DNA from: Verrucomicrobiales bacterium
GTDB taxonomy: Bacteria > Verrucomicrobiota > Verrucomicrobiia > Limisphaerales > UBA11320
Assembly: GCA_016793885.1 (NCBI GenBank)
Contig: JAEUHE010000203.1
Coordinates: 1-64,000 of the forward strand
DNA length: 64,000 bases
Direction: 5' to 3'
The position numbers and the translations under genes are program-made. The stretch's first letter is position 1. Every line of letters begins with the position of its first letter. Of this stretch, positions 1 through 13,066 are shown in pieces. Under the pieces are notes generated by a model that was not told the origin of the DNA, searched no databases, and saw nothing but the letters and a program-made list of their open reading frames with translations.

Positions 1-2
1 AG

Positions 3-161
3 GCGACGCGAGAACCATGGGATTGGGTATTCCAAACGAAAGGATTCTTTGAAGATTTCGATAGGAAGGACGAACAACAGAATGAGCGGAATAAGGGAAA
101 TGGAGTCGCACCCTCCACCCCGAAAGCCCCTTTTGTGAAGAAGGAGACGCGCTTCGGCTAA
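3..161 (+). CDS. C-terminal tail of an upstream protein, probably a CBASS CD-NTase (partial)
   Basis: An open frame enters from the left edge and stops with TAA directly before the ATG of the Cap2-like gene (TAAATG, no gap). The visible 52 residues are charged and flexible and end in KKETRFG. In type II CBASS the cGAS/DncV-like nucleotidyltransferase usually sits directly upstream of cap2 and has a disordered tail ending in Gly or Ala, which Cap2 conjugates to a target. The terminal Gly, the position and the abutting start all fit that role. No catalytic domain is visible, so the identity is inferred from context. An effector or another operon protein remains possible. Confidence 0.5.
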   Translation, partial: ATREPWDWVFQTKGFFEDFDRKDEQQNERNKGNGVAPSTPKAPFVKKETRFG

Positions 162-1907
162 ATGGCTTCGGTCTTCGAGCAACGGTTTGAATGGGCAGCG
201 GCCAAGGCAGCTCAACGACTCCTGGAACTCTTTCCGGAAGCAGGCGAGATCCACGTGGACGGTTACCCTCGCGCTTGGGAGATTGTGCTAGAGACAGGAA
301 TCGGAAATGTTGCAGCCGAGTTGCTTTTACTCGAGTCGTTTCCGTCGTCACTGCCGAAGATCCGCGTAAAGCCCATAAGCGACTTTCGATTCGTGATCCC
401 GCATGTCGAGGAGGACGGTAGCCTCTGCCTCACAACGAATGCTGCAGCCTCACAGATCTCAGCGCCCGAGGCAGCTATTGACCATGTAATCAACTATTCC
501 AAGACACTCCTAGAGTCTCCGAAAGACACCGACTTCGAGCAGGAATTTTTCAGCTATTGGAGAAGAAACGCGGGCGAAGGCGGTGATGTGTTAGTCCTCA
601 CACCCGATGCGGAGATACCCAAGCAAGCGTATTATCTACATGATGGCGCTCAGAGGATGATCGCGGAGGACAGGCTGAAGCTAAAAGAGTGGTGCAAAAG
701 AGCAGGCAAGCCCGAAACACCACTCCACGCCATAAAACGACTCAAACGGGTTGACCTGACCGACCGGTTGCTACCGCGGAAGTTCCCCAAGACTCTCGAG
801 GAGCTACTGCAGTTGCTAGAACCTGAGAATAGAACACTCACTGAATCGATCCGCTCGCATGTGACTCGGAAAACCGGAGAGTTCTTGATCCCCCTACGCA
901 TCCCAACATCCTCAGGGTTCATAGACGCCGCGGTGAGCTTTACTGCGAACGGGGGAAGCGGGAAGAAGGAGATCGTCAGAGGTTTTCGTAAAGGAACCGT
1001 GCCATGGGAAGTGCTGTCGCTCCGCGCGCCCAATGAAACAACCGAGCTCGCAGTCACTAGGCGGGGCGTCCAGTCAGTAAACCCACAACACATTCGAACA
1101 CGAGGAGGCAATGGGACCGATCTCTCCACCAAGCGAGTCGCTGTAGTTGGCTGCGGCTCTCTAGGCGGCTACGTAGCCCACATGCTAGCTCGGATGGGCG
1201 TCGGACATCTCCTCCTGATAGACAATGACACGCTCAGTTGGGACAACGCAGGGCGCCATGTTTTAGGTGGCCTGCAGGTTGGAACTAGGAAAGCAGAAGC
1301 GCTTCGAAAACTTCTTCAGATGGAGTCACCACACCTCGACATCGTTCATCTGAATTCGGACATCCGGAAGCTGCTTTCGATCACTCCCTCACAGCTAGAA
1401 GGGGTGGACCTGGTCGTTTCTACTATGGGTGTGTGGGAGGTAGAATACGATCTGAACTATTGGGCGCGCCGCACCGTCAATCCACTCCCTGTAGTCTTCG
1501 CATGGATAGAACAGCAGGGCCTTGCGGGTCACGCCTTGCTCGTACACCCGCTGGAAGGAGGATGCCTGGCCTGTGGCTGCAATGAGTGGGGTGAGTTCAA
1601 GCTCAGTGTCACGGACCCTGAGATCGTCAGCCAGGTTGCAGGCCGTGGATGCAGCGGTTTCTATCAACCTTACGGGGTAGCGGAGATGATGCCAACCGCC
1701 TCAATGACTGTAAAATTAGTCGCCGATACACTTGTTGCTCGTTGCAGGGAATCAGAGCTCCGTACTTACCTCGGTCCAAAGGAAGAATTTGACAGACATG
1801 GACTGATCGCGCGGTCTCCGTGGGACGCTATGATCCAAGCCTCACCCCACGGCAAGTTCCATAGCCAGTCGTGGGCTGTGGCGCGGGAGTGTTTAATCGG
1901 CCGTTAA
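162..1907 (+). CDS. cap2: Cap2-like E2-E1 fusion (ubiquitin-like conjugation enzyme of type II CBASS)
   Basis: 581 aa, the usual length for Cap2. Residues about 1-150 form an E2/UBC-like domain with the catalytic cysteine C89 in the context DGSLCL. A linker follows. Residues about 320-560 are a ThiF/E1 adenylation domain with the nucleotide loop VGCGSLGG (about 328-336), the acidic loop IDNDTLSWDNAGRH and cysteine-bearing segments CLACGC (about 470) and GRGCSGF (about 496), which include candidate E1 cysteines. In type II CBASS, Cap2 activates the C-terminus of the CD-NTase and conjugates it to cellular targets, priming the cyclase. It abuts the upstream tail ending in Gly and is followed 1 bp later by a JAB peptidase, the standard cap2-cap3 order. 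Base composition looks somewhat lower in GC than the genes after 6.5 kb, consistent with acquisition. Confidence 0.88.
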   Translation: MASVFEQRFEWAAAKAAQRLLELFPEAGEIHVDGYPRAWEIVLETGIGNVAAELLLLESFPSSLPKIRVKPISDFRFVIPHVEEDGSLCLTTNAAASQISAPEAAIDHVINYSKTLLESPKDTDFEQEFFSYWRRNAGEGGDVLVLTPDAEIPKQAYYLHDGAQRMIAEDRLKLKEWCKRAGKPETPLHAIKRLKRVDLTDRLLPRKFPKTLEELLQLLEPENRTLTESIRSHVTRKTGEFLIPLRIPTSSGFIDAAVSFTANGGSGKKEIVRGFRKGTVPWEVLSLRAPNETTELAVTRRGVQSVNPQHIRTRGGNGTDLSTKRVAVVGCGSLGGYVAHMLARMGVGHLLLIDNDTLSWDNAGRHVLGGLQVGTRKAEALRKLLQMESPHLDIVHLNSDIRKLLSITPSQLEGVDLVVSTMGVWEVEYDLNYWARRTVNPLPVVFAWIEQQGLAGHALLVHPLEGGCLACGCNEWGEFKLSVTDPEIVSQVAGRGCSGFYQPYGVAEMMPTASMTVKLVADTLVARCRESELRTYLGPKEEFDRHGLIARSPWDAMIQASPHGKFHSQSWAVARECLIGR

Positions 1908-1908
1908 A

Positions 1909-2442
1909 ATGGACTGGGAACGCGCAATCCAAGCAGGCATCGAGTTCCGAACAGGACCCGGGAATGAGATCCTTCGTATTGAGCCTCGAGCGCTTGCGAC
2001 ATTTGAACGTTACCGCCAACTCAGACCTACGGACCCAGAGGCTGGAGGGATGCTGCTAGCCAGCATCGAAACCAATTTCGTCCGCATCGCCCGGGCCACG
2101 GAGCCAGAAACACAAGACAAGCGGACCCGGTTGTCATTCCGGCCCGCCCTTGGACCTCAGCAACGCACCATCGACAGAGAGTTCAGCGCTGGGCTTCATT
2201 TTATCGGCGAATGGCACACGCACCCCGAACCATGCCCGGTGCCCTCACAAGTCGATGTTTGTTCCATGAACGACTGTTTTCGGTTATCCAAACATCAGCT
2301 CGCTGGTTTGGTAATGATTATTATCGGGACAGAGCGGTCTATGAAAGGTCTATGGATCAGTATCCACACCGACGACGCTTACCATCGACTCGTCACATCC
2401 GGTCCCATTACCCCTATCACACCAGAATCCTCCGAGGGCTAG
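1909..2442 (+). CDS. cap3: Cap3-like JAB/JAMM isopeptidase
   Basis: 177 aa, single JAB/MPN domain. The JAMM zinc motif is complete: GEWHTHPEPCPVPSQVD gives H103, H105, S113 and D116 in the form HxH-x7-SxxD. An upstream glutamate near residue 50-60 would serve as general base. In type II CBASS, Cap3 cleaves CD-NTase-target conjugates made by Cap2 and so counteracts priming. The gene starts 1 bp after cap2 ends and stops 3 bp before hsdR, so translation is probably coupled across the whole block. Eukaryote-like JAB peptidases also occur with other bacterial ubiquitin-like operons, but the E2-E1 fusion next door favours Cap3. Confidence 0.87.
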   Translation: MDWERAIQAGIEFRTGPGNEILRIEPRALATFERYRQLRPTDPEAGGMLLASIETNFVRIARATEPETQDKRTRLSFRPALGPQQRTIDREFSAGLHFIGEWHTHPEPCPVPSQVDVCSMNDCFRLSKHQLAGLVMIIIGTERSMKGLWISIHTDDAYHRLVTSGPITPITPESSEG

Positions 2443-2445
2443 ATC

Positions 2446-5400
2446 ATGTCCACCACTCCAAACTTTATCGAAGCCCTGATCAGCCAGATACCGGCGCTGC
2501 AGACGTTGCAACAACTGGGGTTCACCTATCTCACTCCTGAGGAATGCAACGAACAGCGGAGGAAGCGACTGGGGCGGGTGTTGCTGGAGGACATACTTGC
2601 AGGACAGCTCCGTCGCCTGAACAGAATCCACTTTAAGGGGCAAGAGTTGCCATTTTCGGAGGACAACATCGCCAAAGCTGTCGAAGTCTTACGGGATATC
2701 CCCTTCGAAGGCCTCGTGCGCACGAGTGAAAAAGTCTATGATTTGCTCACCCTAGGTAAAAGCCTCGACCAGACTATCGGTAGCGAGACGAAGGGATTCA
2801 CGGTCCGATACATCGACTGGCAGAACCCTCGCAACAACGTTTTCCACGTCACAGCCGAGTTTGAGGTAGAGCGGACGGGGAGCAAAGAGCCGCGTCGCCC
2901 GGATATCGTGTGCTTCGTGAACGGCATCCCGTTGGTGGTCATCGAGTGCAAGCGCCCAGACGAAAAGGATTCGCTGCAACAGGCCATGAACCAGCAGATC
3001 CGAAACTGGAAAGGGGACGAGATCCCCCAGCTCTTCCTCTACATCCAGCTCGTGGTGGCTTTGAACAAGAATGAGGCCAGTTTCGCTACCACCGGTGCGC
3101 CCCTGAAGTTCTGGGCCAAGTGGAAGGAAATGCAGGATGTCAAAGCCCAGGTCCGAGCGGTGGTGAACAGCCCCCTGCGCGCGGAGGACTACCGAAAACT
3201 CTTCACCGGCCCCTTTGCTCTGGCGCGGGAAACCTTTGAGCAACAGATGCTGCACGAGCGTGAGCCCACGGCGCAGGATTACTTACTCTGGTCGCTCTGT
3301 CGGCCGGAACGGCTCATTGAGTTAGCCCGGCAGTTCATCCTCTATGACGAAGGCGGTGCAGTGAAAAAAATCGCCCGCTACCAGCAATACTTCGCCATCA
3401 AGGCCACGCTGGAACGGGTGCGGCAACGGGATGCTCAGGGACGGCGCAAAGGCGGAGTCATCTGGCAGACCCAGGGAAGCGGGAAGTCACTAGCAATGGT
3501 GCTCCTTGGAAAGGCGCTGGCCATGGAGCCGTCCATCCCCAACCCGCGGATCGTGATCGTTACGGATCGCATCGACCTCGACGAGCAGATCACCAAGACC
3601 TTTCATCAATGTGGCAAGGAGCCTCAACAGGCGAAGACCGGGGCGCACTTGATCGAACTGCTCAAAGACGAGCGAGTGAGTGTCATCACTACAGTGCTGT
3701 TCAAGTTCGAGACGGCTGCCAAGGCCGCACGCGAGCTGCATCGCCTCAAAGATGACATCTTTGTGCTCGTGGACGAAAGCCATCGAAGTCAATACGGGGA
3801 CGCGAACATCCAGATGCAGAAGGCGCTGCCGAACGCATGCTACATCGGGTTCACCGGCACGCCGCTGATGAAGGCGGAGAAAAGCACGGCCACCAAGTTC
3901 GGTGGATTCATTGAGCCAGCCTATACCATCCGCGACGCGGTGGCAGATCAAGCGGTGGTTCCACTGCTCTACGAGGGCCGTCACATCGTGCAGAAGGTGA
4001 ATCAGAAACCAGTGGACGCGATGTTTGAGGCCATGAGCGAGGGCTTGACCCACGAACAGAAGGCCGATCTGAAGCGAAAGTTCTCAGCCCGCGACGAGAT
4101 TAACTGCCTCCAAAGCCGCCTCTACCTAATCGCGTGGGATGTGTCCCAACATTTCTCGAAGCAGTGGAAAGGAACGGGCTTCAAGGGTCAGATCACGGCA
4201 CCAGGCAAGAAGGAAGCGCTGTTGTTGAAGGCATACTTTGACCAGTTCGGCAAGGTGAGCACCGAGGTCATTATCTCCGGTCCTGGCGAGATCGAGAATC
4301 CTGAGGATCATTCAACGGCGGAAAAGGAAGAGAGCGTGGAAGTGTTCTGGAAAGCCATGATGACGAAGTATGGCACCGAGAAGGAATACAATCGCCGCAT
4401 CATCGACGCGTTCAAAAAGGCGGAAGATCCTGAGATCCTCATCGTGGTGGACAAGTTACTCACAGGGTTCGATGCCCCGCGCAACGTGGTGCTCTACATC
4501 GCTCGCAGTCTGAGTGGCCATACCCTTCTCCAAGCTATCGCCCGCGTCAACCGACTGCATCCTGGGAAGGATTACGGCTACATCATCGACTACTACGGCG
4601 TAGTTACCGAACTATACGATGCCCTGGAGCTTTACAGCAGCTTGGAGGGCAAATTCGATGCCGAAGATCTGGAAGGCACCCTCACGAATATCGCCGATGA
4701 GATCAAGACTCTCCCCTCACTGCACGACGCTCTGTGGGATCTCTTCAAGGCAGTGAAGAACAAGAGTGACGAAGAATCCTTTGAGTTGGCCCTGGAGCCA
4801 AAGGAACATCGGGAGGATTTCTATACCCGACTGTGGCGCTTCAGCCGTGTGCTGAGGATGGCCTGTTCCAGTATTCACTGGGTGACTGCCACGCCAGCGG
4901 AGCAAGCGCAGAGATACAAGAGTGACGCGGCCTTCTTCCAGAAACTGCGCGCCAGCGTGAAACTCCGTTATGCGGAGGAGATCGACTACCGCGACTATGA
5001 GAAGCAGATCCAGAAAATGCTGAACACCTACGTTCAGGCGGAAGAAGTCATCCAGGTAGTGGAACCGGTAAATATCTTCCAACGGGAAGCCTTCGCGGCC
5101 GAAGTAGACAAGGCGAAGTCTCCTCGTGCCAAGGCGGACACCATCGCCAACCGCACCAAGAAAACCATTACGGAGAAAATGGAGGAGGATCCGTTCTTCT
5201 ATCGCAAACTATCCGCCCTGCTTCAACAAGCCATTGAGGACTACAAGGCCGAACGGATCAGCGAGGCCCAATACCTCGAGAAAGTAACCGCGGTCATGGA
5301 ACAGGTACGGGTTGGCACCCGTGAAGGCATCCCATCCGTGCTCCACCAAAGCGACTTAGCCAGGGCCTATTTCGGCGCCCTGAAAGAACACATGATGGAC

Positions 5401-5709
5401 GGATCGAGCGGGGAAGATGCCCTCCGGGAGACCGCTCCTCCTTACCGCGCAAACGCTGATCGCGAGAAGACCGCTAACGTTCCAAGTGAGTTTCTCGCTG
5501 ACTTAGCCTGCAAGATTGAGGGGAGAATCAACGAGCATGCAGTCGTCCGGTGGCGCGACAGCCAGGATGCTCAGAACCGGATGCGCAATGACTTGGATGA
5601 CCTCCTCTTTCAAGCGCAACAGGAACGCGGTTTGAATCTGTCCTACTCTCAGATGGATGCCATTATCGAAGCCATTCTCCGGATCTCACGGAACCGGTCG
5701 GATGTCTGA
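2446..5709 (+). CDS. hsdR: Type I restriction enzyme, R (HsdR) subunit
   Basis: 1087 aa, normal for HsdR. The N-terminal nuclease has a PD-(D/E)xK core: D153 in RRPDIVCF, then E167 and K169 in VVIECKRP. The SF2 motor has Walker A QGSGKS (about 340-350), a DEAD-box variant DESH (about 443), GFTGTPL, and motif VI-like LLQAIARVNRLHPGKDYG. A helical C-terminal region follows. It would translocate DNA and cut unmethylated DNA together with HsdM and HsdS, neither of which is in the window. It begins 3 bp after cap3 and ends overlapping the YgjP-like gene by 8 bp. HsdR following a CBASS tail at this spacing suggests the two systems share a transcript. Confidence 0.95.
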   Translation: MSTTPNFIEALISQIPALQTLQQLGFTYLTPEECNEQRRKRLGRVLLEDILAGQLRRLNRIHFKGQELPFSEDNIAKAVEVLRDIPFEGLVRTSEKVYDLLTLGKSLDQTIGSETKGFTVRYIDWQNPRNNVFHVTAEFEVERTGSKEPRRPDIVCFVNGIPLVVIECKRPDEKDSLQQAMNQQIRNWKGDEIPQLFLYIQLVVALNKNEASFATTGAPLKFWAKWKEMQDVKAQVRAVVNSPLRAEDYRKLFTGPFALARETFEQQMLHEREPTAQDYLLWSLCRPERLIELARQFILYDEGGAVKKIARYQQYFAIKATLERVRQRDAQGRRKGGVIWQTQGSGKSLAMVLLGKALAMEPSIPNPRIVIVTDRIDLDEQITKTFHQCGKEPQQAKTGAHLIELLKDERVSVITTVLFKFETAAKAARELHRLKDDIFVLVDESHRSQYGDANIQMQKALPNACYIGFTGTPLMKAEKSTATKFGGFIEPAYTIRDAVADQAVVPLLYEGRHIVQKVNQKPVDAMFEAMSEGLTHEQKADLKRKFSARDEINCLQSRLYLIAWDVSQHFSKQWKGTGFKGQITAPGKKEALLLKAYFDQFGKVSTEVIISGPGEIENPEDHSTAEKEESVEVFWKAMMTKYGTEKEYNRRIIDAFKKAEDPEILIVVDKLLTGFDAPRNVVLYIARSLSGHTLLQAIARVNRLHPGKDYGYIIDYYGVVTELYDALELYSSLEGKFDAEDLEGTLTNIADEIKTLPSLHDALWDLFKAVKNKSDEESFELALEPKEHREDFYTRLWRFSRVLRMACSSIHWVTATPAEQAQRYKSDAAFFQKLRASVKLRYAEEIDYRDYEKQIQKMLNTYVQAEEVIQVVEPVNIFQREAFAAEVDKAKSPRAKADTIANRTKKTITEKMEEDPFFYRKLSALLQQAIEDYKAERISEAQYLEKVTAVMEQVRVGTREGIPSVLHQSDLARAYFGALKEHMMDGSSGEDALRETAPPYRANADREKTANVPSEFLADLACKIEGRINEHAVVRWRDSQDAQNRMRNDLDDLLFQAQQERGLNLSYSQMDAIIEAILRISRNRSDV

Positions 5710-6403
5710 ATCTTCGACCATCTCAACCGCTGTGGGTGAGTGCCGGCTGCGGCGGTCAAATCGACGCACTTTGGCGATCAGCGTACATCCCGATGGCACC
5801 GTCGAGCTGGCAGCTCCCAAAATGGCAGCAGTTGACGCCATCACCGCCAAAGTCGCCAAAAGGTCGGGTTGGATCAGGCTCCAGCGACAACGGTTCGCAG
5901 AGATGAATCGGGATCGCCTACCGCTTCGATATGTCAGTGGAGCCAGTCATCGCTACCTCGGCCGACAATACCGGCTCAAAGTCCGGAAGGCAGAGCCGAC
6001 GGAAGTTCGCTTGGTCGGCGGGTATTTCTTGATCAACGCCAAGTCTGACGATCAGGACGAAGTGAGAGCCTTGTTGGAGCGATGGTTCCGTAAACACGCT
6101 CAAGCTCTCTTCGCGCAACGGTTATCCCAGTGGTCCGAATGGTGCCGGGCTCGAAAACTGCCGGAACCCCGCCTGAGCCTGCTCAAAATGCCCAAGCGAT
6201 GGGGTAGCGCCCAGCGAGATGGTCGAATCCGGCTCAATCCGGAACTGGTCCGGATGCCCTCCATCTGCATCGACTACGTCGTGGCTCACGAAATCTGTCA
6301 CCTTCGATTTCCCACCCATGACCCAAGGTTCTACCGTCAACTCTCGGAGTTGATGCCGGACTGGCGAAAGATAAAGGCGCGGCTGGAATCCGAACCGCTT
6401 TAA
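5702..6403 (+). CDS. YgjP-like zinc metallopeptidase domain protein (DUF45)
   Basis: 233 aa from the ATG at 5702, which overlaps the hsdR stop by 8 bp. This start is preferred to an in-frame one at 5657 because it gives the usual coupled overlap. The C-terminal zincin motif VVAHEICHLRFPTHDPRF contains HExxH, preceded by the family block RWGSAQRDGRIRLNPELV. YgjP/DUF45 proteins are known to be encoded with type I restriction genes, often directly after hsdR. Their substrate is not established; control of restriction or processing of a subunit is a guess. This is the last gene of the defence block, followed by about 150 bp without a gene. Confidence 0.88.
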   Translation: MSESSTISTAVGECRLRRSNRRTLAISVHPDGTVELAAPKMAAVDAITAKVAKRSGWIRLQRQRFAEMNRDRLPLRYVSGASHRYLGRQYRLKVRKAEPTEVRLVGGYFLINAKSDDQDEVRALLERWFRKHAQALFAQRLSQWSEWCRARKLPEPRLSLLKMPKRWGSAQRDGRIRLNPELVRMPSICIDYVVAHEICHLRFPTHDPRFYRQLSELMPDWRKIKARLESEPL

Positions 6404-6550
6404 GGTGGGGTGTTTTGTCCTCGGGCCAGGAATGGAAACCGTGGTGACCAGAGCTATCAACTCCTTGGTAAGGCTCAACTTGCGGGCTCAGCCAGCCGAT
6501 AGTCTAAGGTAGGGCACGCGGGCCTTCCCGTCGTCGGGAGGCAAAGACGC

Positions 6551-7273
6551 GTGCTCCATCGCAATCGGATCGAGACAACGACAAGCAAACCGGATATCCA
6601 GGTGAACCCTCTGCAATGGATCGTCACCAACGCCACGCATCGAGGTATCGGCCGCACGCTGACCGTCGGACTCAGCTACGCCGAGGACTATCTCTTTGAT
6701 TGGCGCAATGGCACCGATACGGTGCGTCGAGTCGAAGTCGGAACTCTGGACTTTTCTTCCAATAACAAAGCTCAGGCCAAAACCTACGGAGCCACCAAAG
6801 CTCGGCCGTTTCTCAAGCTCCTGCAAATTCTCGATCTTCCGCGCGACGCCACCTTCGTCGACATCGGATCCGGCAAAGGCAGGGTGCTCATGCTCGCCGC
6901 TCAGGCGGGATTTCAGCGCGTCGTGGGCATCGATTTCTCCCCCCAGCTCTGCGAGATCGCCACGCAGAACATCGCCGCGTTCCGAAAGCACACCGGCGTT
7001 CAGGCCCAGATCGACATCCTTCAGGCAGACGCCACGGCGTATGAGTTCACTCCTGACCAACAGGTGTTTTTCATGTTCGATCCGTTTCTCCCAGCAGTGG
7101 TGAAACAAGTGATCAGCAACCTGGGCCGTTCGATCGAAGACTCCCCCCGGAAATGCTGGCTGATCTACCTAGCACCCAAATACCACTCGGCCATCGCCGA
7201 AACCAAGGTCTTCCCCGAGCCTCACGACTTCACCCTCTTTGGTGCCGACTACAAGGTCTACACCACCGCCTAG
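6551..7273 (+). CDS. Class I SAM-dependent methyltransferase
   Basis: 240 aa from a GTG start; another in-frame GTG lies at 6602 and the true start is uncertain. Motif I is clear: TFVDIGSGKGRVLMLAA (about 97-113), followed by the acidic end of strand 2 VVGIDFS and later an FMFDPF motif in the motif IV position. A conserved ATKARPF segment precedes the Rossmann domain. The substrate cannot be told. It lies 63 bp upstream of the ketoacyl synthase homologue on the same strand and may be the first gene of the acyl cluster, or a stand-alone enzyme between the defence island and the cluster. Confidence 0.8.
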   Translation: MLHRNRIETTTSKPDIQVNPLQWIVTNATHRGIGRTLTVGLSYAEDYLFDWRNGTDTVRRVEVGTLDFSSNNKAQAKTYGATKARPFLKLLQILDLPRDATFVDIGSGKGRVLMLAAQAGFQRVVGIDFSPQLCEIATQNIAAFRKHTGVQAQIDILQADATAYEFTPDQQVFFMFDPFLPAVVKQVISNLGRSIEDSPRKCWLIYLAPKYHSAIAETKVFPEPHDFTLFGADYKVYTTA

Positions 7274-7336
7274 CCGAGGTATGCCTCCCATCGCTGCATC
7301 ACTCCGCTTCGACCAGCCAACCTCATTCAACGCCCC

Positions 7337-8371
7337 ATGGCCATCAGTCACCTGATTCCCCCTCAACTTCGCGGTATCGTTTCGAGCGTGCCTAAACGTC
7401 GGTTCGATAACCTCGCCGATACCGTGCAATTTCCTAAAGAGGATGTGGAGAAGGTGGTGCGCATGGCCGGAGTCAAAGCGCGCCGGGTAGCCGATGATGA
7501 GACGTGCAGCAGCGATCTGTGTCGCGTCGCCGCCACGGAATTACTCCAGCAGCTGGGCTGGAGCCCGGATTCCATCGATGGGCTCATCTTCGTGACCCAA
7601 AGCCCCGATTACTTTCTCCCTTCCACCGCCTGCCTGCTTCATCGTGCGCTCGGGCTCTCGCCACACTGTGCCGCGTTTGACCTGGGATTGGGCTGCTCGG
7701 GCTATCCCTACGGGCTCTCGCTCGCCACGATGATGCTGCAGTCCTCCGGCTACCGCCGCCTGCTCCTGCTTCACGGCGAAACTCCCACGCGCTTCTCGGA
7801 TCAAGGCGACCGATCCGTAGCTCTGCTGTTCGGCGATGCCGGTTCCGCCACCGCTCTCGAGGCCGACCCTGAGGCCGCCCAACGAAGTCGGTGGACCTTT
7901 GATCTCCAAACCGACGGCACCGGCTCCGAGGATCTCATTATCCGCGGGGGTGGCTATCGCAAACGGTTCCCCACCGATCCGCGCGACTGTTTCGTCAACA
8001 TGAACGGAGCCAACGTGTTCAACTTTACGATCAAGCGCATCCCCGCACTCATCCAATCGACCCTCGCAGCCGCGCAGCGTTCCAAGGCCGAGGTGGATTA
8101 CTTCATCTTCCATCAGTCCAATCAGTTCATCATCAAACACCTCGCCAAGAAGGAAGGCCTCCCTGAGTCCAAATTGCCGCTCACCCTGGGAGAATTTGGC
8201 AGCGTGGGAGGTCCCTCCATCCCACTCACACTAACCCAGGGGGGCTTGCAGCGCCCTCCCGACCGCTCGTTGAGCCTGCTGCTACTGGGCTACGGAGTGG
8301 GGCTCTCCTGGGGATCCGCCCTGATCGACCTCGCCCCGACGACTCATCTGGGCCATGTCGAGTACCCCTAG
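7337..8371 (+). CDS. 3-oxoacyl-ACP synthase III (FabH)-like protein
   Basis: 344 aa, thiolase fold. The nucleophile is C120 in LGLGCSGYPYGL and the catalytic histidine is H259 in FIFHQSNQF. The third residue, Asn in canonical FabH (GNTSAASIPL), appears to be Ser here (S289 in EFGSVGGPSIPL). This suggests altered decarboxylating chemistry, for example acyl transfer or condensation with a non-malonyl partner. FabH-like proteins of this kind occur in surface-polysaccharide and small secondary-metabolite loci beside stand-alone carrier proteins, as here. Acyl substrate unknown. A 400 bp gap separates it from the first carrier protein gene. Confidence 0.85.
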   Translation: MAISHLIPPQLRGIVSSVPKRRFDNLADTVQFPKEDVEKVVRMAGVKARRVADDETCSSDLCRVAATELLQQLGWSPDSIDGLIFVTQSPDYFLPSTACLLHRALGLSPHCAAFDLGLGCSGYPYGLSLATMMLQSSGYRRLLLLHGETPTRFSDQGDRSVALLFGDAGSATALEADPEAAQRSRWTFDLQTDGTGSEDLIIRGGGYRKRFPTDPRDCFVNMNGANVFNFTIKRIPALIQSTLAAAQRSKAEVDYFIFHQSNQFIIKHLAKKEGLPESKLPLTLGEFGSVGGPSIPLTLTQGGLQRPPDRSLSLLLLGYGVGLSWGSALIDLAPTTHLGHVEYP

Positions 8372-8774
8372 CAGCCTGTCGGACTTGTCCACAAGGGAAG
8401 ATAGTCCGGCGGGGCGATTGACCTTATTTTCCGACCCCCGGGGGGTCATAGAGATTAGCCGGGTGATCGACGATCCCCGGAATCGATCCCCTAGATGGCA
8501 GAGCATCGCGCAGCGATGCCACGTCCGGCGGAGAGAAGGGTGGCCCCCCAATCGAAGGGGGAGTGTGAACTCACGCTCAAGGATGTCACAAAGCCTTCTC
8601 AATCCGTGTCATCCGTTCAATCCGTAGTCCCTCCATTCCCGGATTTAGGCTAAACCCGACGGCGATCGCTCCGATCAATCATTAGCCGCTGATTTCGGCG
8701 ATCAGGGTGGGAATGTGTCCCCTGCCCTCAGAGTGTCTCGGTTCGTCGAAGTCGAATGCGGCCCAAATCGCCGT
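8372..8774. other. 403 bp intergenic region with a short palindrome
   Basis: No convincing reading frame. It contains the palindromic unit at 8501-8523 (GCATCGC and GCGATGC arms) that recurs near 52.9 kb. Runs such as the CCCCCGGGGGG stretch near 8437-8447 and an inverted CCCCCAATCGAAGGGGG near 8545 could form small hairpins. No promoter was convincing. Confidence 0.5.
8501..8523. repeat. Short palindromic repeat, copy A
   Basis: GAGCATCGCGCAGCGATGCC followed by ACG; GCATCGC pairs with GCGATGC. The same 23 bases with one change occur at 52930-52952, also between genes. Confidence 0.6.
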
Positions 8775-9023
8775 ATGACATCGTTAACGGAAGCTCAAGC
8801 GCTGGAGTGGGTGGCTAACCTCTTTGCCGTCCCTCCAGATACCCTCAGCCTGGATACCTCCCGCAACGATATCGTTCTGTGGGATTCCTTGGGAGTGCTC
8901 ATGATTATCGCCAGTCTCGACGAAGAGTTCGGGATCACGGTCACCGATGCCGACATGCGTAACTGCACCAAGGTTCGGGATCTGGTCGCCCTGCTCAACA
9001 AACATGGAAGGATCGCGGCGTGA
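8775..9023 (+). CDS. Acyl carrier protein (first of two in the cluster)
   Basis: 82 aa from the ATG at 8775; an in-frame start at 8715 would add 20 residues unlike any carrier protein. The four-helix carrier fold is suggested by length, acidity and the phosphopantetheine site LWDSLGVLMII, with Ser in DSL at the start of helix 2. It would be converted to the holo form by a 4'-phosphopantetheinyl transferase encoded elsewhere. Placed between the FabH-like enzyme and the hexapeptide acyltransferase, it is the likely donor for the transferase. Confidence 0.86.
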   Translation: MTSLTEAQALEWVANLFAVPPDTLSLDTSRNDIVLWDSLGVLMIIASLDEEFGITVTDADMRNCTKVRDLVALLNKHGRIAA

Positions 9024-9069
9024 TCTCCTCGACGAGATTATCCCTGCACGCCCCTTCTACCACCGTCGC

Positions 9070-10188
9070 ATGCTGACCGACAAACCCAGGCTTCCGCTCC
9101 TGAGCATTGCGCTCACGGGCTTCTTACCGTCCTTTCTCAAGTGCTGGATCTACCGACTCCAAGGCTATCGAATCGGCAAAGGAGTCAAGTTTGGCCTGGG
9201 ATCGGTCCTCATCGGCAAGGACGTTGAAATCGGCGACCATTCGAGTTTCGGACTGCTGAGCGTCATCCGCGGGGAACGAATCCGGATCGGCAGCCACGTG
9301 GAATTTCGCGCGATGTCGATTTTTGACACGCCTCATCTCGAGATCGGCGACGGCACGCGCATCAATGAACAGGTCTTCGTAGGTGGCCTCCAGTCGGCCA
9401 AGTCCAAGCTGATCGTTGGCCGCAACTGCCAGATCATGCAGATGACATTCATCAACCCCGCGCGATCAATCACCATCGGGGACGATTCCGGAATCGGCGG
9501 ACACTGCCTGATCTTCGGTCACAGCTCTTGGCTCAGTGAGTTCGAGGGCTATCCCGTGGAGTTCGAGGATATCGTCATCGGCAAAAGCGTCTCGCTCACC
9601 TGGCGGGTCTTTGTGCTGCCAGGAACCACGATCGGTGATGGCGCGGTCATTGGCGCCAACTCGCTGGTCCGGGGCAAAGTCCCGGGACGCTGCCTCGCGG
9701 TTGGATTTCCGGCTCGGGTCGTCAGCCGCGAGCCGGATTTTCCTCGTCCCATGTCGTATGAAGACAAGCGCGAGGTTCTGGAAAAGCTCCTGGTCGAGTA
9801 TGAGCAATTTCTGAGCGAATACGGTTTCCAATGCCGCAGTGGGCCGGGAACGTTCCAGGTTCAGGATTCAAAGAGTGGAAAGAGCTGGCTCATGAAGGTG
9901 GCCTTCACGAGCGACGATCCGCTGCCCGCTCACGAAACCAGTGTGTTTCTGAGTCTGGCGACGCTTTCTCAGTCCCGTCGTGACGAACTCGATCGACTGA
10001 GAATTCCCTGGATCGACATCGCCTCTAAGGACCGATCCGATCAAGGAAACCATTTCGCCGAGGAGACAGTGCAGTTCCTGCGACGCTACGGCGTTCGCCT
10101 CTATCGACCCGGATGGCCACATGCCGAAGTCTCCGACAATCGCTCCACACAACCCGACGATCTACCCAATTACCGATCCGCCGCCTAA
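9070..10188 (+). CDS. Left-handed beta-helix (hexapeptide) acyltransferase with C-terminal extension
   Basis: 372 aa from the ATG at 9070. An ATG at 9004 overlaps the carrier-protein gene by 20 bp and is an alternative; neither has a strong ribosome-binding site. After a short hydrophobic N-terminus, residues about 30-215 show repeated I-G-x4 hexapeptides (IGKGVKFG, IGKDVEIGDH, IGSHVEFR, IGDGAVIGANSLV), ending with the typical VPGRCLAVGFPARVV. Such enzymes O- or N-acylate sugars or other acceptors. About 130 residues follow that are not hexapeptide repeat and are not recognised. The gene ends 7 bp before the NadE-like gene, so they are probably co-translated. Confidence 0.82.
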   Translation: MLTDKPRLPLLSIALTGFLPSFLKCWIYRLQGYRIGKGVKFGLGSVLIGKDVEIGDHSSFGLLSVIRGERIRIGSHVEFRAMSIFDTPHLEIGDGTRINEQVFVGGLQSAKSKLIVGRNCQIMQMTFINPARSITIGDDSGIGGHCLIFGHSSWLSEFEGYPVEFEDIVIGKSVSLTWRVFVLPGTTIGDGAVIGANSLVRGKVPGRCLAVGFPARVVSREPDFPRPMSYEDKREVLEKLLVEYEQFLSEYGFQCRSGPGTFQVQDSKSGKSWLMKVAFTSDDPLPAHETSVFLSLATLSQSRRDELDRLRIPWIDIASKDRSDQGNHFAEETVQFLRRYGVRLYRPGWPHAEVSDNRSTQPDDLPNYRSAA

Positions 10189-10195
10189 GATCCGC

Positions 10196-11191
10196 ATGAG
10201 CATCCCAGCCTTTCACTCCGACCAACTCAAGATCGACGCCGCCAAGGAGGTCGACAACATCGGCAACTTTCTGCGGGTTGCCCTGGCTCGAACGCTCCGC
10301 CGCCGCGGAATCGTGGTTGGAATTTCAGGGGGCATTGATAGCGCCGTCACCGCTGCACTGGCGGTCCGCGCCCTGGGTCCTGAGCGCGTCTTCTGTCTAC
10401 TCATGCCCGAACGCGAATCGAGCCCGGATACTCTCGCCCTGAGTCGCGGCCTGGCTCAACATCTGGACACGCGATTCGAAGTCGAGGACATAACCCAAAC
10501 GCTGGAAGCTGTGGGATTTTATCGTCGGTATCGCGATGCGGTTCGGAAAGTGGTACCCGACTACGGCGAAGGCTGGGGATCCAAAATGGTGGCCACCACT
10601 TCGGCTGAACAACGCGGATTCACCTTTTTCTCGTTGGTCGTGGCCAACCCCGCCGGAGAGACTCGAACGGTGCGATTGCCCATCGAAGTGTATCTCGAGA
10701 TCGTCGCGACCACCAATTTCAAGCAGCGCTGCCGCAAACTGCTGGAGTATCACTACGCTGATCGATGGAACTTCGCCGTTGCTGGAACTCCTAATCTTTT
10801 GGAATACGATCAAGGCTTCTTTGTCAAAAATGGGGACGGCGCCGCTGACATCAAACCCATCGCGCATCTCTACAAAACACAGGTGTATCAACTGGCTGAG
10901 TATCTCGGTATTCCGACGGAAATCCGCCAGCGTCCCCCCACCACCGACACCTACTCCCTGGCCCAAGGACAGGATGAGTTCTACTTTGCGCTTCCTTACC
11001 GGGAAATGGATCTCTGCCTCTACGGCTTAAACCACGGGATTCCAGCGAGTCAGGTCGCCCGCGCGGCCGGCATTTCGGAGGCTCAGGTGACGAACGCCTG
11101 GGCGAACATCCAGCAGAAGCGCAGCACCGTTCATTACCTTCACCTCCCACCTCTCGTGCTGCCGCGCACCCCTGAACTGCTGGCAGCCTAG
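10196..11191 (+). CDS. NAD synthase (NadE)-like ATP-dependent amide ligase
   Basis: 331 aa from the ATG at 10196, 7 bp after the acyltransferase stop. The PP-loop is VVGISGGIDSAVTAAL with SGGIDS at 44-49. Downstream GTPNLLEYDQGFFVKNGDGAADIKPIAHLYKTQV matches the NadE active-site block, but the family's NKSE reads NLLE. There is no glutaminase (nitrilase) domain, so it would use free ammonia or an amidotransferase partner. NadE adenylates a carboxylate and amidates it. The altered motif and the setting between acyl-transfer genes suggest a paralogue working on a cluster intermediate rather than on deamido-NAD. True NAD synthetase cannot be excluded. Confidence 0.82.
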   Translation: MSIPAFHSDQLKIDAAKEVDNIGNFLRVALARTLRRRGIVVGISGGIDSAVTAALAVRALGPERVFCLLMPERESSPDTLALSRGLAQHLDTRFEVEDITQTLEAVGFYRRYRDAVRKVVPDYGEGWGSKMVATTSAEQRGFTFFSLVVANPAGETRTVRLPIEVYLEIVATTNFKQRCRKLLEYHYADRWNFAVAGTPNLLEYDQGFFVKNGDGAADIKPIAHLYKTQVYQLAEYLGIPTEIRQRPPTTDTYSLAQGQDEFYFALPYREMDLCLYGLNHGIPASQVARAAGISEAQVTNAWANIQQKRSTVHYLHLPPLVLPRTPELLAA

Positions 11192-11218
11192 AATAAAACC
11201 ATTCAAACACTTCTTCCC

Positions 11219-11467
11219 ATGAGCGAAATCAAACAAAACGTTCGGCAATTTGTGGTGAACCACTTCCTCTTCGGCCAGGACCCCGGACTGACCGACGACG
11301 CCTCCTTCCTGGAACAGGGATTCATCGATTCCACCGGGGTGTTGGAACTGGTCGCGTTCATCGAGAAGGAATACGCGACCAAAGTCAGCGATGACGAATT
11401 GGTCCCCGACAACCTCGATTCCATAACCTCGATCGCTGATTTCATCGAACGGAAACGCTGCGCATAG
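11219..11467 (+). CDS. Acyl carrier protein (second of two in the cluster)
   Basis: 82 aa, acidic, with the phosphopantetheine attachment region EQGFIDSTGVLELVAFIE, Ser in DST. It differs from the first carrier protein and resembles the D-alanyl/amino-acyl type more than FabH-pathway ACP. It starts 27 bp after the NadE-like gene and ends 21 bp before the acyl ligase, which is the obvious enzyme to load it. Confidence 0.87.
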   Translation: MSEIKQNVRQFVVNHFLFGQDPGLTDDASFLEQGFIDSTGVLELVAFIEKEYATKVSDDELVPDNLDSITSIADFIERKRCA

Positions 11468-11488
11468 CAGCGTCATCCCAGGCTCTGA

Positions 11489-13066
11489 ATGGACGCACGC
11501 AACTCAACTCAACCCCTCATGCAACCCATGCTGGTCCAACACTTTTTGGAACACTCGGCCGAGCGGTTCCCTGAGAAGACGGCGCTGGTCTGTGAAGGCC
11601 GCCGATGGACCTATCGTCAGATGGATGACTTGGCCAATCGCGTGGCCAACAGTCTGATCGGCCTAGGGGTGAAGCGCGGAGATCGGGTAGGCATTTGCCT
11701 GCGCAACTCGGCGGAAGCCGTTGCGTCCATTTTCGGCATTCTCAAGGCCGGTGGGGTCTTTGTCCCCGTGAACGCCACGATCAAACGGGACAAGCTGGAA
11801 TACATTCTCAATAACTGCCAAGCCACCGCCCTCATTTTCGACAGCCGGACCTCCGCCAAGCTGACCCTGGCGGCAGACTCCACCACGGTGACCTCCTTGA
11901 AGGGGGGACTGGTGACCGGTCCGGAGGAAGGAACGCTGACGCGCTGGGGACGGCCCGTGCAACCTTGGTCGAGCCTCGAAGCGGCCCTGCCCTCGACGCG
12001 ACCGAAACCGCAGAACATCGATGTCGATCTCGCCTGCCTCATCTACACCTCGGGAACTACCGGGGATGCCAAGGGCGTGATGAGCGACCACAGCAACATG
12101 GTGTTTGCCTCCGGCTCCATCATGGAATACCTGGGCATGCGATCGGACGATGTGATCATCAACGTCCTTCCGCTTTCCTTTGACTACGGACTCTACCAAC
12201 TTCTGATGACTTTCCGAGCCGGCGGGACGCTGGTGCTGGAAAACTCGTTCGCTTACCCTGCCGCCATCCTGAACCTCCTGGTGAAGGAAAAGGTCACCGG
12301 ATTCCCGGGTGTTCCCACGTTGTTTGAGATCCTGCTCCGGCTCGACTTGAGCGCCTACGATCTGTCGTCGCTTCGCTTTCTGACCAACACCGCCGCAGCC
12401 CTTCCGCCGAGTCGTGTTCTAGACCTGCGGAACCGCTTTCCACAAGCGCGGGTGTTCTCGATGTATGGACTGACCGAGACCAAACGAACGCTTTATCTAC
12501 CCCCGGAGTGGCTCGACGCCAAACCGGGCTCGGTGGGCATCGCCATTCCCGGGACCGAAGTCTGGATCGAAGACGAGGCCGGAAATCGCCTCGGGCCAGG
12601 CCAGACCGGCGAGCTGGTGGCCCGTGGTCGACATGTGATGCGTGGCTACTGGCAGGCGGAGGAAGCCACCGCACGTCGTTTCCCTCCCGGCCGCACGCCG
12701 GGAGAACGGGTCTGCCGCACGGGAGATCTGTTCCGCATGGATGAGGACGGATGCTGCTATTTCGTCGCCCGCAAGGACGACGTCATCAAGAGCCGAGGAG
12801 AGAAAGTCGCACCGAAAGAAGTGGAGAACGTCATCTACGCCCTGCCCGGTGTGCGCGAGGTCGCGGTCGTGGGAGTCCCCGACCCGATCCTCGGGCAGGC
12901 GGTAAAGGCGCTCGTGGTGAGCGAATCGAAGGACCTCACCGCCGCGTCCGTCCTGGCTCATTGTCGCGCCCATCTCGAAGACTTCATGGTCCCCAAACTG
13001 GTCGAGTTCAGGGAATCCCTACCCAAGACCGAGTCGGGCAAGATCGCCCGAAAGGAGTTGGTCTAA
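11489..13066 (+). CDS. AMP-dependent acyl/amino-acyl ligase (ANL superfamily)
   Basis: 525 aa. ANL motifs in order: P-loop LIYTSGTTGDAKG (about 184-196), YGLTETKRT near 330, RTGDLFRMDEDG near 410, the hinge and C-lobe VARKDDVIKSRGEKVAPKEVEN, and the C-terminal catalytic lysine K518 in PKTESGKIARKEL. It would adenylate a carboxylic or amino acid and transfer it to a phosphopantetheine thiol, most simply that of the carrier protein 21 bp upstream. Its stop overlaps the next start by one base (TAATG). The substrate cannot be read from the sequence. Confidence 0.92.
   Translation: MDARNSTQPLMQPMLVQHFLEHSAERFPEKTALVCEGRRWTYRQMDDLANRVANSLIGLGVKRGDRVGICLRNSAEAVASIFGILKAGGVFVPVNATIKRDKLEYILNNCQATALIFDSRTSAKLTLAADSTTVTSLKGGLVTGPEEGTLTRWGRPVQPWSSLEAALPSTRPKPQNIDVDLACLIYTSGTTGDAKGVMSDHSNMVFASGSIMEYLGMRSDDVIINVLPLSFDYGLYQLLMTFRAGGTLVLENSFAYPAAILNLLVKEKVTGFPGVPTLFEILLRLDLSAYDLSSLRFLTNTAAALPPSRVLDLRNRFPQARVFSMYGLTETKRTLYLPPEWLDAKPGSVGIAIPGTEVWIEDEAGNRLGPGQTGELVARGRHVMRGYWQAEEATARRFPPGRTPGERVCRTGDLFRMDEDGCCYFVARKDDVIKSRGEKVAPKEVENVIYALPGVREVAVVGVPDPILGQAVKALVVSESKDLTAASVLAHCRAHLEDFMVPKLVEFRESLPKTESGKIARKELV

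What the first reader, a model, noticed from the sequence alone, without database searches (positions are those of the whole stretch)
3..6403. Type II CBASS tail fused in one tight block with hsdR and a YgjP-like peptidase
Seen: a tail ending in Gly, cap2-like E2-E1 fusion, cap3-like JAB, hsdR and a YgjP-like gene follow one another with gaps of 0-3 bp or overlaps. Known: Cap2/Cap3 belong to type II CBASS, and YgjP-like genes accompany type I restriction. Inferred: the CBASS module is nested within, and co-expressed with, the type I operon, coupling abortive signalling to restriction. An insertion between hsdS and hsdR is the simplest history.
Basis: partly seen in the sequence, partly recalled or inferred. 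Interest (0 to 1): 0.75.

Follow-up and report, generated by a model that had tools for sequence, protein, structure and literature searches.

The report
CBASS immune genes inside restriction operon
A complete bacterial 'suicide-signal' antiviral system (type II CBASS with a DNA-shredding effector) sits inside a type I restriction-modification operon, between the gene that recognises DNA and the gene that cuts it, and relatives show that this spot is a recurrent docking site for exchangeable defence genes, CBASS among them.

Summary
The window starts at a contig edge inside the cyclase gene. The missing upstream piece is contig C171: its last 29 bases equal window 1-29, and that 29-mer occurs nowhere else in the genome. 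The joined operon reads half-hsdS, hsdM, rhuM, hsdS, nucC, CD-NTase, cap2, cap3, hsdR, ygjP; from hsdS on, every junction lies between -17 and +3 bp. The 'tail' is the CD-NTase C-terminus (ends ...ETRFG); the effector is NucC. A distant Verrucomicrobia MAG carries the same ten genes. In 387 sampled genomes of the window's phylum, 6 of 26 CD-NTase places lie between hsdS and hsdR. The slot is empty in 3 of 26 assessable loci and otherwise filled in 18. NucC-CBASS there comes with three signalling modules: type I-like, short type II, long type II. The hsdS/hsdR slot is a published hotspot (DarTG2, TgvAB); nine searches of an open-access library showed me no report of CBASS in it. Most likely: two-layer defence, restriction first, NucC abortive infection second, co-transcribed. 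Biochemical coupling between the layers is not shown.

The parts
1..29 (+). contig-end overlap with C171:7212-7240, joining the upstream half of the operon
   Evidence: exact 29-bp match, two occurrences in the genome, 0 for the reversed control
3..161 (+). 3' end of CD-NTase (last 52 of 346 aa), C-terminal ...ETRFG with terminal Gly suited to Cap2 conjugation
   Evidence: frame continues from C171:6332; joined protein 75% identical to the L021 cyclase; PADLOC cyclase 1.4e-88 on the upstream part
162..1907 (+). cap2, E2-E1 fusion (581 aa); putative E2 Cys89 in GSLCLTT
   Evidence: Pfam Prok-E2_B + ThiF, PADLOC E1-E2 1.6e-124; Cys89 conserved in L021
1909..2442 (+). cap3, JAB/JAMM isopeptidase (177 aa)
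   Evidence: PADLOC JAB 1.1e-49; HTHPEPCPVPSQVD motif
2446..5709 (+). hsdR, type I restriction subunit (1087 aa)
   Evidence: TIGR00348 over cut-off, PADLOC REase_I 1.3e-206; nuclease and helicase motifs
5702..6403 (+). ygjP-like/SprT-like zinc metallopeptidase (233 aa)
   Evidence: PF01863 3.9e-53; HEICH
6395..6408 (+). weak terminator-like hairpin at the end of ygjP; possible operon end
   Evidence: total terminator count not above shuffles (9 against 7.1 +/- 3.4)

Best explanation
A complete long type II CBASS (NucC effector, CD-NTase, Cap2, Cap3) occupies the hsdS/hsdR cargo slot of a widespread type I restriction family whose frame is half-hsdS, hsdM, (slot 1), hsdS, (slot 2), hsdR, YgjP. 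Shown here: gene content, order, near-zero spacing, intact motifs, the same order in a distant genome, empty and differently filled slots in relatives. Inferred: one transcript from the front of the operon. Inferred from known families: HsdMSR cuts unmodified incoming DNA. If a phage survives, Cap2 primes the cyclase by conjugating its C-terminal Gly, Cap3 reverses this, the cyclase makes a cyclic oligonucleotide (probably cA3, recalled as the NucC ligand), and NucC destroys DNA and aborts infection. Also inferred: the slot persists because cargo there inherits the promoter and is lost only together with the R-M module, and modules are swapped by recombination at conserved hsdS, nucC and hsdR ends.
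For: Join. Families. NucC: Serratia NucC 7zgv E 1.1e-74, E. coli NucC 6p7o 1.2e-44, D...ExK residues aligned. Same order in L021. CBASS in slot 2: own, G175, G333, G434, G140, G373 = 6 of 26 CD-NTase places from 387 genomes, plus L021. Slot census of 35 HsdR places: 26 assessable, 5 CBASS, 3 empty, 18 otherwise filled. HsdR tree: CBASS state changes at least 6 times for 6 CBASS rows. GC3 step: nucC, CD-NTase, cap2, cap3 0.58-0.60 against hsdM 0.74 and hsdR 0.71; the same direction in L021, L040, L041. Six hand-picked named plasmids (Pseudomonadota, Deinococcota) show the frame with Abi, Shedu + DUF3800, Fic, DUF3800, TIGR04141 or nothing in the slot.
Against: No RNA or phenotype data. hsdS and half-hsdS also have low GC3 (0.61, 0.59), so the step is not unique to the cargo. 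A 9-of-12 promoter-like site lies in hsdS about 110 bp before nucC (L026:5424-5451; count at chance level), so CBASS may have its own promoter; and rhuM-hsdS has an 85-bp gap. In G333 the gene before nucC is only a 142-aa HsdS piece, so restriction there may be dead while CBASS remains. Module swapping behind a resident NucC rests on pairwise identities; the trees are weak, and the best NucC tree puts a non-slot NucC (G152) among the slot ones (NucC clade p 0.12; CD-NTase clade p 0.035). Other cargo is commoner than CBASS, so the slot is not CBASS-specific. Most CD-NTase places (18 of 26) have no T1RM gene of this family nearby, apart from one fragment.
Confidence: 0.85

Rival explanations
1. 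Independent neighbour: CBASS has its own promoter and regulation inside the operon, and the nesting only reflects a tolerated landing site in a defence island, without functional cooperation.
For: The slot takes many unrelated cargos; promoter-like site before nucC. In V. cholerae, T1RM-embedded TgvAB alone protected, though less than the whole cluster (PMC11411939, passages).
Against: Overlapping or near-zero junctions on both sides of the cargo in own, L021, L040 and L041; no + strand terminator-like site in the gaps of own.
Confidence: 0.4
2. Direct biochemical coupling: restriction intermediates, or the Hsd complex as Cap2 conjugation partner, switch the cyclase on or off.
For: Recurrent nesting in the same slot; slot-resident NucC is 77-83% identical across four loci while the two groups of cyclases are only 41-45% identical. 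[quoted passage not shown] PMC11153139, passages).
Against: L040 (G175) lacks Cap2 and Cap3 yet keeps the place; non-CBASS cargo uses the same slot.
Confidence: 0.1
3. Assembly chimera joining unrelated contigs, or a binning artefact.
For: The window begins exactly at a contig edge.
Against: 29-bp overlap unique in the genome; reading frame and sequence across the joint match the uninterrupted L021 cyclase.
Confidence: 0.02

Closest known systems
RRDM defence island of enteropathogenic E. coli (RptR, hsdM, hsdS, darTG2, hsdR, M48 peptidase; PMC12255303, passages and section 25 read)
   Same: Abortive-type defence module between hsdS and hsdR, metallopeptidase gene downstream of hsdR; the authors call the site a potential recombination hotspot for defence systems
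   Different: Cargo is a DarTG2 toxin-antitoxin, not CBASS; RptR regulator at the front; no half-hsdS mentioned in the passages read
TgvAB embedded in the VPI-2 T1RM of V. cholerae (PMC11411939 and PMC12409362, passages read)
   Same: Two-gene defence module (VC1767-66) embedded in a T1RM cluster, by gene numbers between HsdS VC1768 and HsdR VC1765
   Different: Modification-dependent type IV nuclease, not nucleotide signalling
Type II CBASS with Cap2 and Cap3 (e.g. B. cereus system, PMC11153139, passages read)
   Same: CD-NTase, E1-E2 Cap2, JAB Cap3, one effector
   Different: Effector here is NucC and the genes are inside a T1RM; that B. cereus system uses Nuc-SAVED (Cap4)
NucC-CBASS on Desulfosarcina ovata plasmid Do28_1
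   Same: NucC, cyclase, Cap2, Cap3
   Different: No R-M gene in the stretch shown; divergent arrangement with a WYL regulator; cyclase and Cap2 only 21-22% identical to own
CapK/CapS-linked R-M and CBASS loci (PMC13373217, passages read)
   Same: R-M and CBASS in one larger locus
   Different: The immune operon lies downstream of the R-M operon behind CapK/CapS, not nested

Membership tests
Type II CBASS | CD-NTase | tested here: met
   PDLC00783 1.4e-88, DncV-like_NTFase PF21654 2e-18, GS...DYDID motif
Type II CBASS | E1-E2 Cap2 | tested here: met
   PDLC00836 1.6e-124; Prok-E2_B + ThiF
Type II CBASS | JAB isopeptidase Cap3 | tested here: met
   PDLC00891 1.1e-49; JAMM motif; below the NCBIfam Cap3 equivalog cut-off (68.8 of 200 bits)
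Type II CBASS | cyclic-oligonucleotide effector | tested here: met
   NucC PDLC00745 7.9e-90; 7zgv 1.1e-74
Type II CBASS | cyclase C-terminal residue suited to conjugation | tested here: met
   terminal Gly in own and L021, last 11 residues identical; conjugation itself not testable
Type II CBASS | cyclic nucleotide synthesis and phage protection | not testable with these tools
   needs biochemistry
Type I restriction-modification | HsdM, HsdS, HsdR in one locus with motifs | tested here: met
   HsdM PF02384 1e-107, HsdM_N, NPPF; HsdS Methylase_S in two stretches; HsdR motifs
Type I restriction-modification | methylation motif and restriction activity | not testable with these tools
   needs methylome data
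T1RM-embedded defence module (hsdS/hsdR slot) | defence genes between hsdS and hsdR, same strand, tight spacing | tested here: met
   hsdS-nucC overlap 17 bp; cap3-hsdR gap 3 bp
T1RM-embedded defence module (hsdS/hsdR slot) | relatives of the same operon without the insert | tested here: met
   G205, G184, G330: hsdS-hsdR gap 4 bp, overlap 1 bp, overlap 4 bp; none of the three is among the nearest HsdR relatives
RptR-regulated island | rptR before hsdM | not tested
   no RptR search was run; one search lists no + strand ORF of 100 aa or more before half-hsdS, and RptR is only 79 aa

The most novel reading that the evidence does not exclude
The restriction family is a defence chassis in which NucC has become a resident second nuclease of the operon, while the signalling module behind it is swapped (cyclase with AGS-C, cyclase + E2, cyclase + Cap2 + Cap3); restriction products or the Hsd complex feed the trigger, making restriction and abortive infection one two-stage machine.
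Probability: 0.15. Interest if true: 0.8.

Novelty: new variant of a known kind. Interest (0 to 1): 0.52.

Why it matters
It adds second-messenger immunity to the known cargo of the hsdS/hsdR slot, shows CBASS of three types entering that slot repeatedly in distantly related genomes, and gives a compact natural construct in which cooperation between restriction and abortive infection can be tested by single-gene removal. It also means that looking at CBASS and R-M loci apart misses their joint architecture.

Tried and rejected
Reading the tail alone against Pfam (sCache_2, E 0.12), NCBIfam (nothing) and PDB (one match, E 1.5): uninformative. Own-genome AGS_C search: none. Cap2 in 58 genomes of the relatives search: apart from the query itself, matches are confined to the E1/ThiF part, best 38% in the own genome, so no close Cap2 there. 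Plasmids: own Cap2 finds 327 records, best place 29.9% identical; NucC finds 123 records, of which I looked at the top 3 neighbourhoods (H21-H23), none with an R-M gene in the stretch shown. Phages: HsdR matches in 3 records, 29-37% identical; not followed. Repeats between half-hsdS and hsdS that would suggest shuffling: none; only one 33-bp, 76% pair between rhuM and hsdS. NucC and CD-NTase trees to prove module swapping: weak, reported as such. Chance estimates: 5 of the 25 CD-NTase places other than the own one in the slot under uniform placement, p about 9e-13 (I assumed 2 slots per 4500 genes); 5 of 7 T1RM-proximal ones in the slot, p 6e-6 if the slot is 1 of 20 positions, 0.005 if 1 of 5. 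These rest on my assumed denominators, and counting the G427:C15 locus with a 76-aa HsdM fragment would make it 5 of 8. The claim that L021 lies in another phylum was dropped: the window's phylum is not named and the tools tell no kinship for L021; it may be the same phylum.

Literature: nine searches of an open-access library. All 16 papers holding both 'CBASS' and 'hsdS' were seen as a list; passages were read in four of them (PMC12255303, PMC11411939, PMC8565338, PMC12409362). None of what I read describes CBASS between hsdS and hsdR. The Payne 'genetically embedded' preprint is not held, so it may list such cases.
Full report
What is there. The window is C203:1-64000 of an 8.7-Mb assembly in 274 contigs, so its left edge is a contig edge. 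Reading frames 3-161, 162-1907, 1909-2442, 2446-5709 and 5702-6403 abut with gaps of 0, 1 and 3 bp and an 8-bp overlap. Pfam and PADLOC agree on cap2 (E2 + ThiF-type E1), cap3 (JAB) and hsdR; NCBIfam confirms hsdR over its cut-off and puts cap3 below its Cap3 cut-off; Pfam names the YgjP-like metallopeptidase. The 52-aa tail scores weakly as the end of a CBASS cyclase.

The missing half. A CBASS cyclase model finds one place in the genome, C171:6338-7240, running off that contig's end; an hsdM model finds C171:2165-3073 among three places. C171 is 7,240 bp. Its last 29 bases equal the window's first 29, and this 29-mer occurs exactly twice in the genome, at those two ends, with none for the reversed control. 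The cyclase frame runs through the joint, and the L021 cyclase shows closely similar sequence there without a break. The joined operon is half-hsdS (193 aa), hsdM, rhuM, hsdS, nucC (257 aa), CD-NTase (346 aa), cap2, cap3, hsdR, ygjP. Spacing from hsdS on: -17, -4, 0, +1, +3, -8 bp; before it, rhuM and hsdS are 85 bp apart. The effector matches Serratia NucC (1.1e-74) and E. coli NucC (1.2e-44), with the D...ExK residues aligned (that these are the NucC catalytic residues, and that NucC responds to cA3, I recall). Cap3 has the JAMM motif, HsdR its nuclease, Walker A and DESH motifs, HsdM NPPF, YgjP HEICH. No + strand terminator-like site lies in the gaps; one lies at the end of ygjP; counts do not exceed shuffles.

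Relatives. The one genome contigs locus found with a close Cap2 (Verrucomicrobia MAG WAS_Bin_16, L021) has the same ten genes in the same order. Identities by tblastn: HsdM 79, RhuM 57, NucC 84, CD-NTase 75, Cap2 64, Cap3 66, HsdR 64, YgjP 57, HsdS 31 and half-HsdS 39%. The window's own phylum is not named, so I cannot say whether L021 is of the same phylum. In 387 genomes of the window's phylum, CD-NTase models PDLC00783 (11 places) and SMODS (20 places) give 26 distinct places, some of them weak matches. I fetched surroundings for all 26 and looked for T1RM subunits with queries and models from this family, which can miss distant T1RM families; several loci are also cut by contig ends. Six lie between hsdS and hsdR: own; G175 (NucC + cyclase with AGS-C sensor, type I-like); G333 (NucC + cyclase + stand-alone E2, short type II); G434 (Cap15-type effector + cyclase + E2, then rhuM); G140 (SMODS-AGS_C cyclase + 2TM effector split in two frames); G373 (SMODS-AGS_C cyclase + SLATT_6 2TM effector). 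In G333 the hsdS before nucC is only 142 aa. Two more places are beside a T1RM but outside the slot (G316, G200); the other 18 show no clear T1RM set of this family: models found only a 76-aa HsdM fragment at G427:C15, and a looser single-sequence search gave a weak HsdM match (28%, 6e-5) at G424. Of the 6 places with a NucC match below E 1e-80 in the same genomes, 3 are in the slot.

The slot. HsdR homologues at E <= 1e-100 occur at 35 places in 34 of 387 genomes. In 26 of them an hsdS (in a few cases a piece) lies upstream on the same contig; 8 are cut by contig ends and in one (G226) no hsdS was recognised. Of the 26, 5 hold CBASS, 3 are empty (G205, G184, G330), 17 hold other genes and one (G147) about 1 kb with only small frames. 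Other cargo named by Pfam or PADLOC: Fic, Schlafen/AlbA, KAP NTPase, DUF6119, RhuM, a Thoeris ThsB-like TIR protein, PADLOC candidates HEC-07, PDC-S39, PDC-M04A; several cargo genes had no match and not every one was scanned. G434 was reached through its cyclase, not through this HsdR list. Six named plasmids that I picked from the 30 listed HsdR matches (443 records in all) show the same frame, with Abi, Shedu + DUF3800, Fic, DUF3800, TIGR04141 or nothing between hsdS and hsdR, and a SprT-type metalloprotease after hsdR in all six.

History. On a quick HsdR tree the own protein pairs with G291 (99% SH-aLRT), whose slot holds Fic, and the CBASS/non-CBASS state needs at least 6 changes for 6 CBASS rows; some long branches make deep places unsure, and cut or unclear loci were left out of the count. 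Slot-resident NucC is 77-83% identical over own, L021, G175 and G333, while the cyclases split into own/L021 (76%) and G175/G333 (68%), 41-45% apart; the G333 cyclase is as close to a non-slot one (G152, 67%) as to G175; HsdR of own is closer to G175 (71%) than to L021 (65%). This suggests exchange of the cyclase module beside a retained NucC. Formal trees are weak: with seven rows, holding the four slot cyclases as one clade gives p 0.035 and the four slot NucC p 0.12, and the best NucC tree puts the G152 NucC among them. Third-position GC falls from 0.71-0.74 (hsdR, hsdM) to 0.58-0.60 (nucC to cap3), with the same direction in L021, L040 and L041; hsdS and half-hsdS are also low in own.

Mechanism. 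Most likely a two-layer defence under one promoter: HsdMSR restricts unmodified DNA; surviving phage triggers the Cap2-primed cyclase, and NucC ends the infection. The operon layout is shown; single transcription, ligand identity and activity are inferred from families. That restriction and CBASS act on each other is possible but unsupported beyond layout. The locus with no Cap2 or Cap3 (G175) and the many non-CBASS cargos argue that the slot's main property is co-expression and co-inheritance.

Compared with what is known. The hsdS/hsdR position as a defence hotspot, with a metallopeptidase gene downstream of hsdR, is published for DarTG2 in enteropathogenic E. coli (PMC12255303, passages and section 25), and a defence module inside a T1RM cluster for TgvAB in V. 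cholerae (PMC11411939, PMC12409362, passages). R-M operons followed by CapKS and an immune operon such as CBASS are published (PMC13373217, passages). I found no report of CBASS inside the slot in nine searches; the Payne preprint on embedded systems is not held and may contain it. Hence: a known kind of arrangement with a cargo I did not find reported there, and a recurrent one.

Noticed in passing
L026:1095-1676 (C171): A stand-alone half-HsdS (one target-recognition domain) lies before hsdM in 22 of 24 loci of this T1RM family that have hsdM with enough upstream sequence (absent in L081 and L043; counted by hand) and in 4 of 6 named plasmids. Its role is unexplained.
   Followed up: partly
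L026:3178-4206 and relatives: A second cargo slot between hsdM and hsdS holds RhuM (own, L021, plasmid L112), other genes in several relatives (L041: KilA- and AlbA-like by eye) or a MazEF pair (L113).
   Followed up: no
L041:10548-10976 (G333): The hsdS piece before nucC is only 142 aa, so restriction may be broken at this locus while the CBASS frames are open.
   Followed up: no
L063:11736-12327 (G140): The 2TM CBASS effector is split into two overlapping reading frames matching PDLC00695 1-88 and 85-190: a frameshift or a sequence error.
   Followed up: no
G311:C1:4002189-4002917: A strong NucC match with one internal stop.
   Followed up: no
L037 (G316): A short type II CBASS-like set (cyclase, E2, 205-aa neighbour) transcribed away from a half-hsdS/hsdM/hsdS operon: next to, not inside.
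   Followed up: partly
G000:C38:2006-2608: Another E1/ThiF-like stretch, 38% identical to the Cap2 E1 part, elsewhere in the same genome.
   Followed up: no
window 6551-13066: Directly downstream lies an unrelated-looking cluster (methyltransferase; by eye ketoacyl-synthase-, acyl-carrier-, acetyltransferase- and AMP-ligase-like frames).
   Followed up: no
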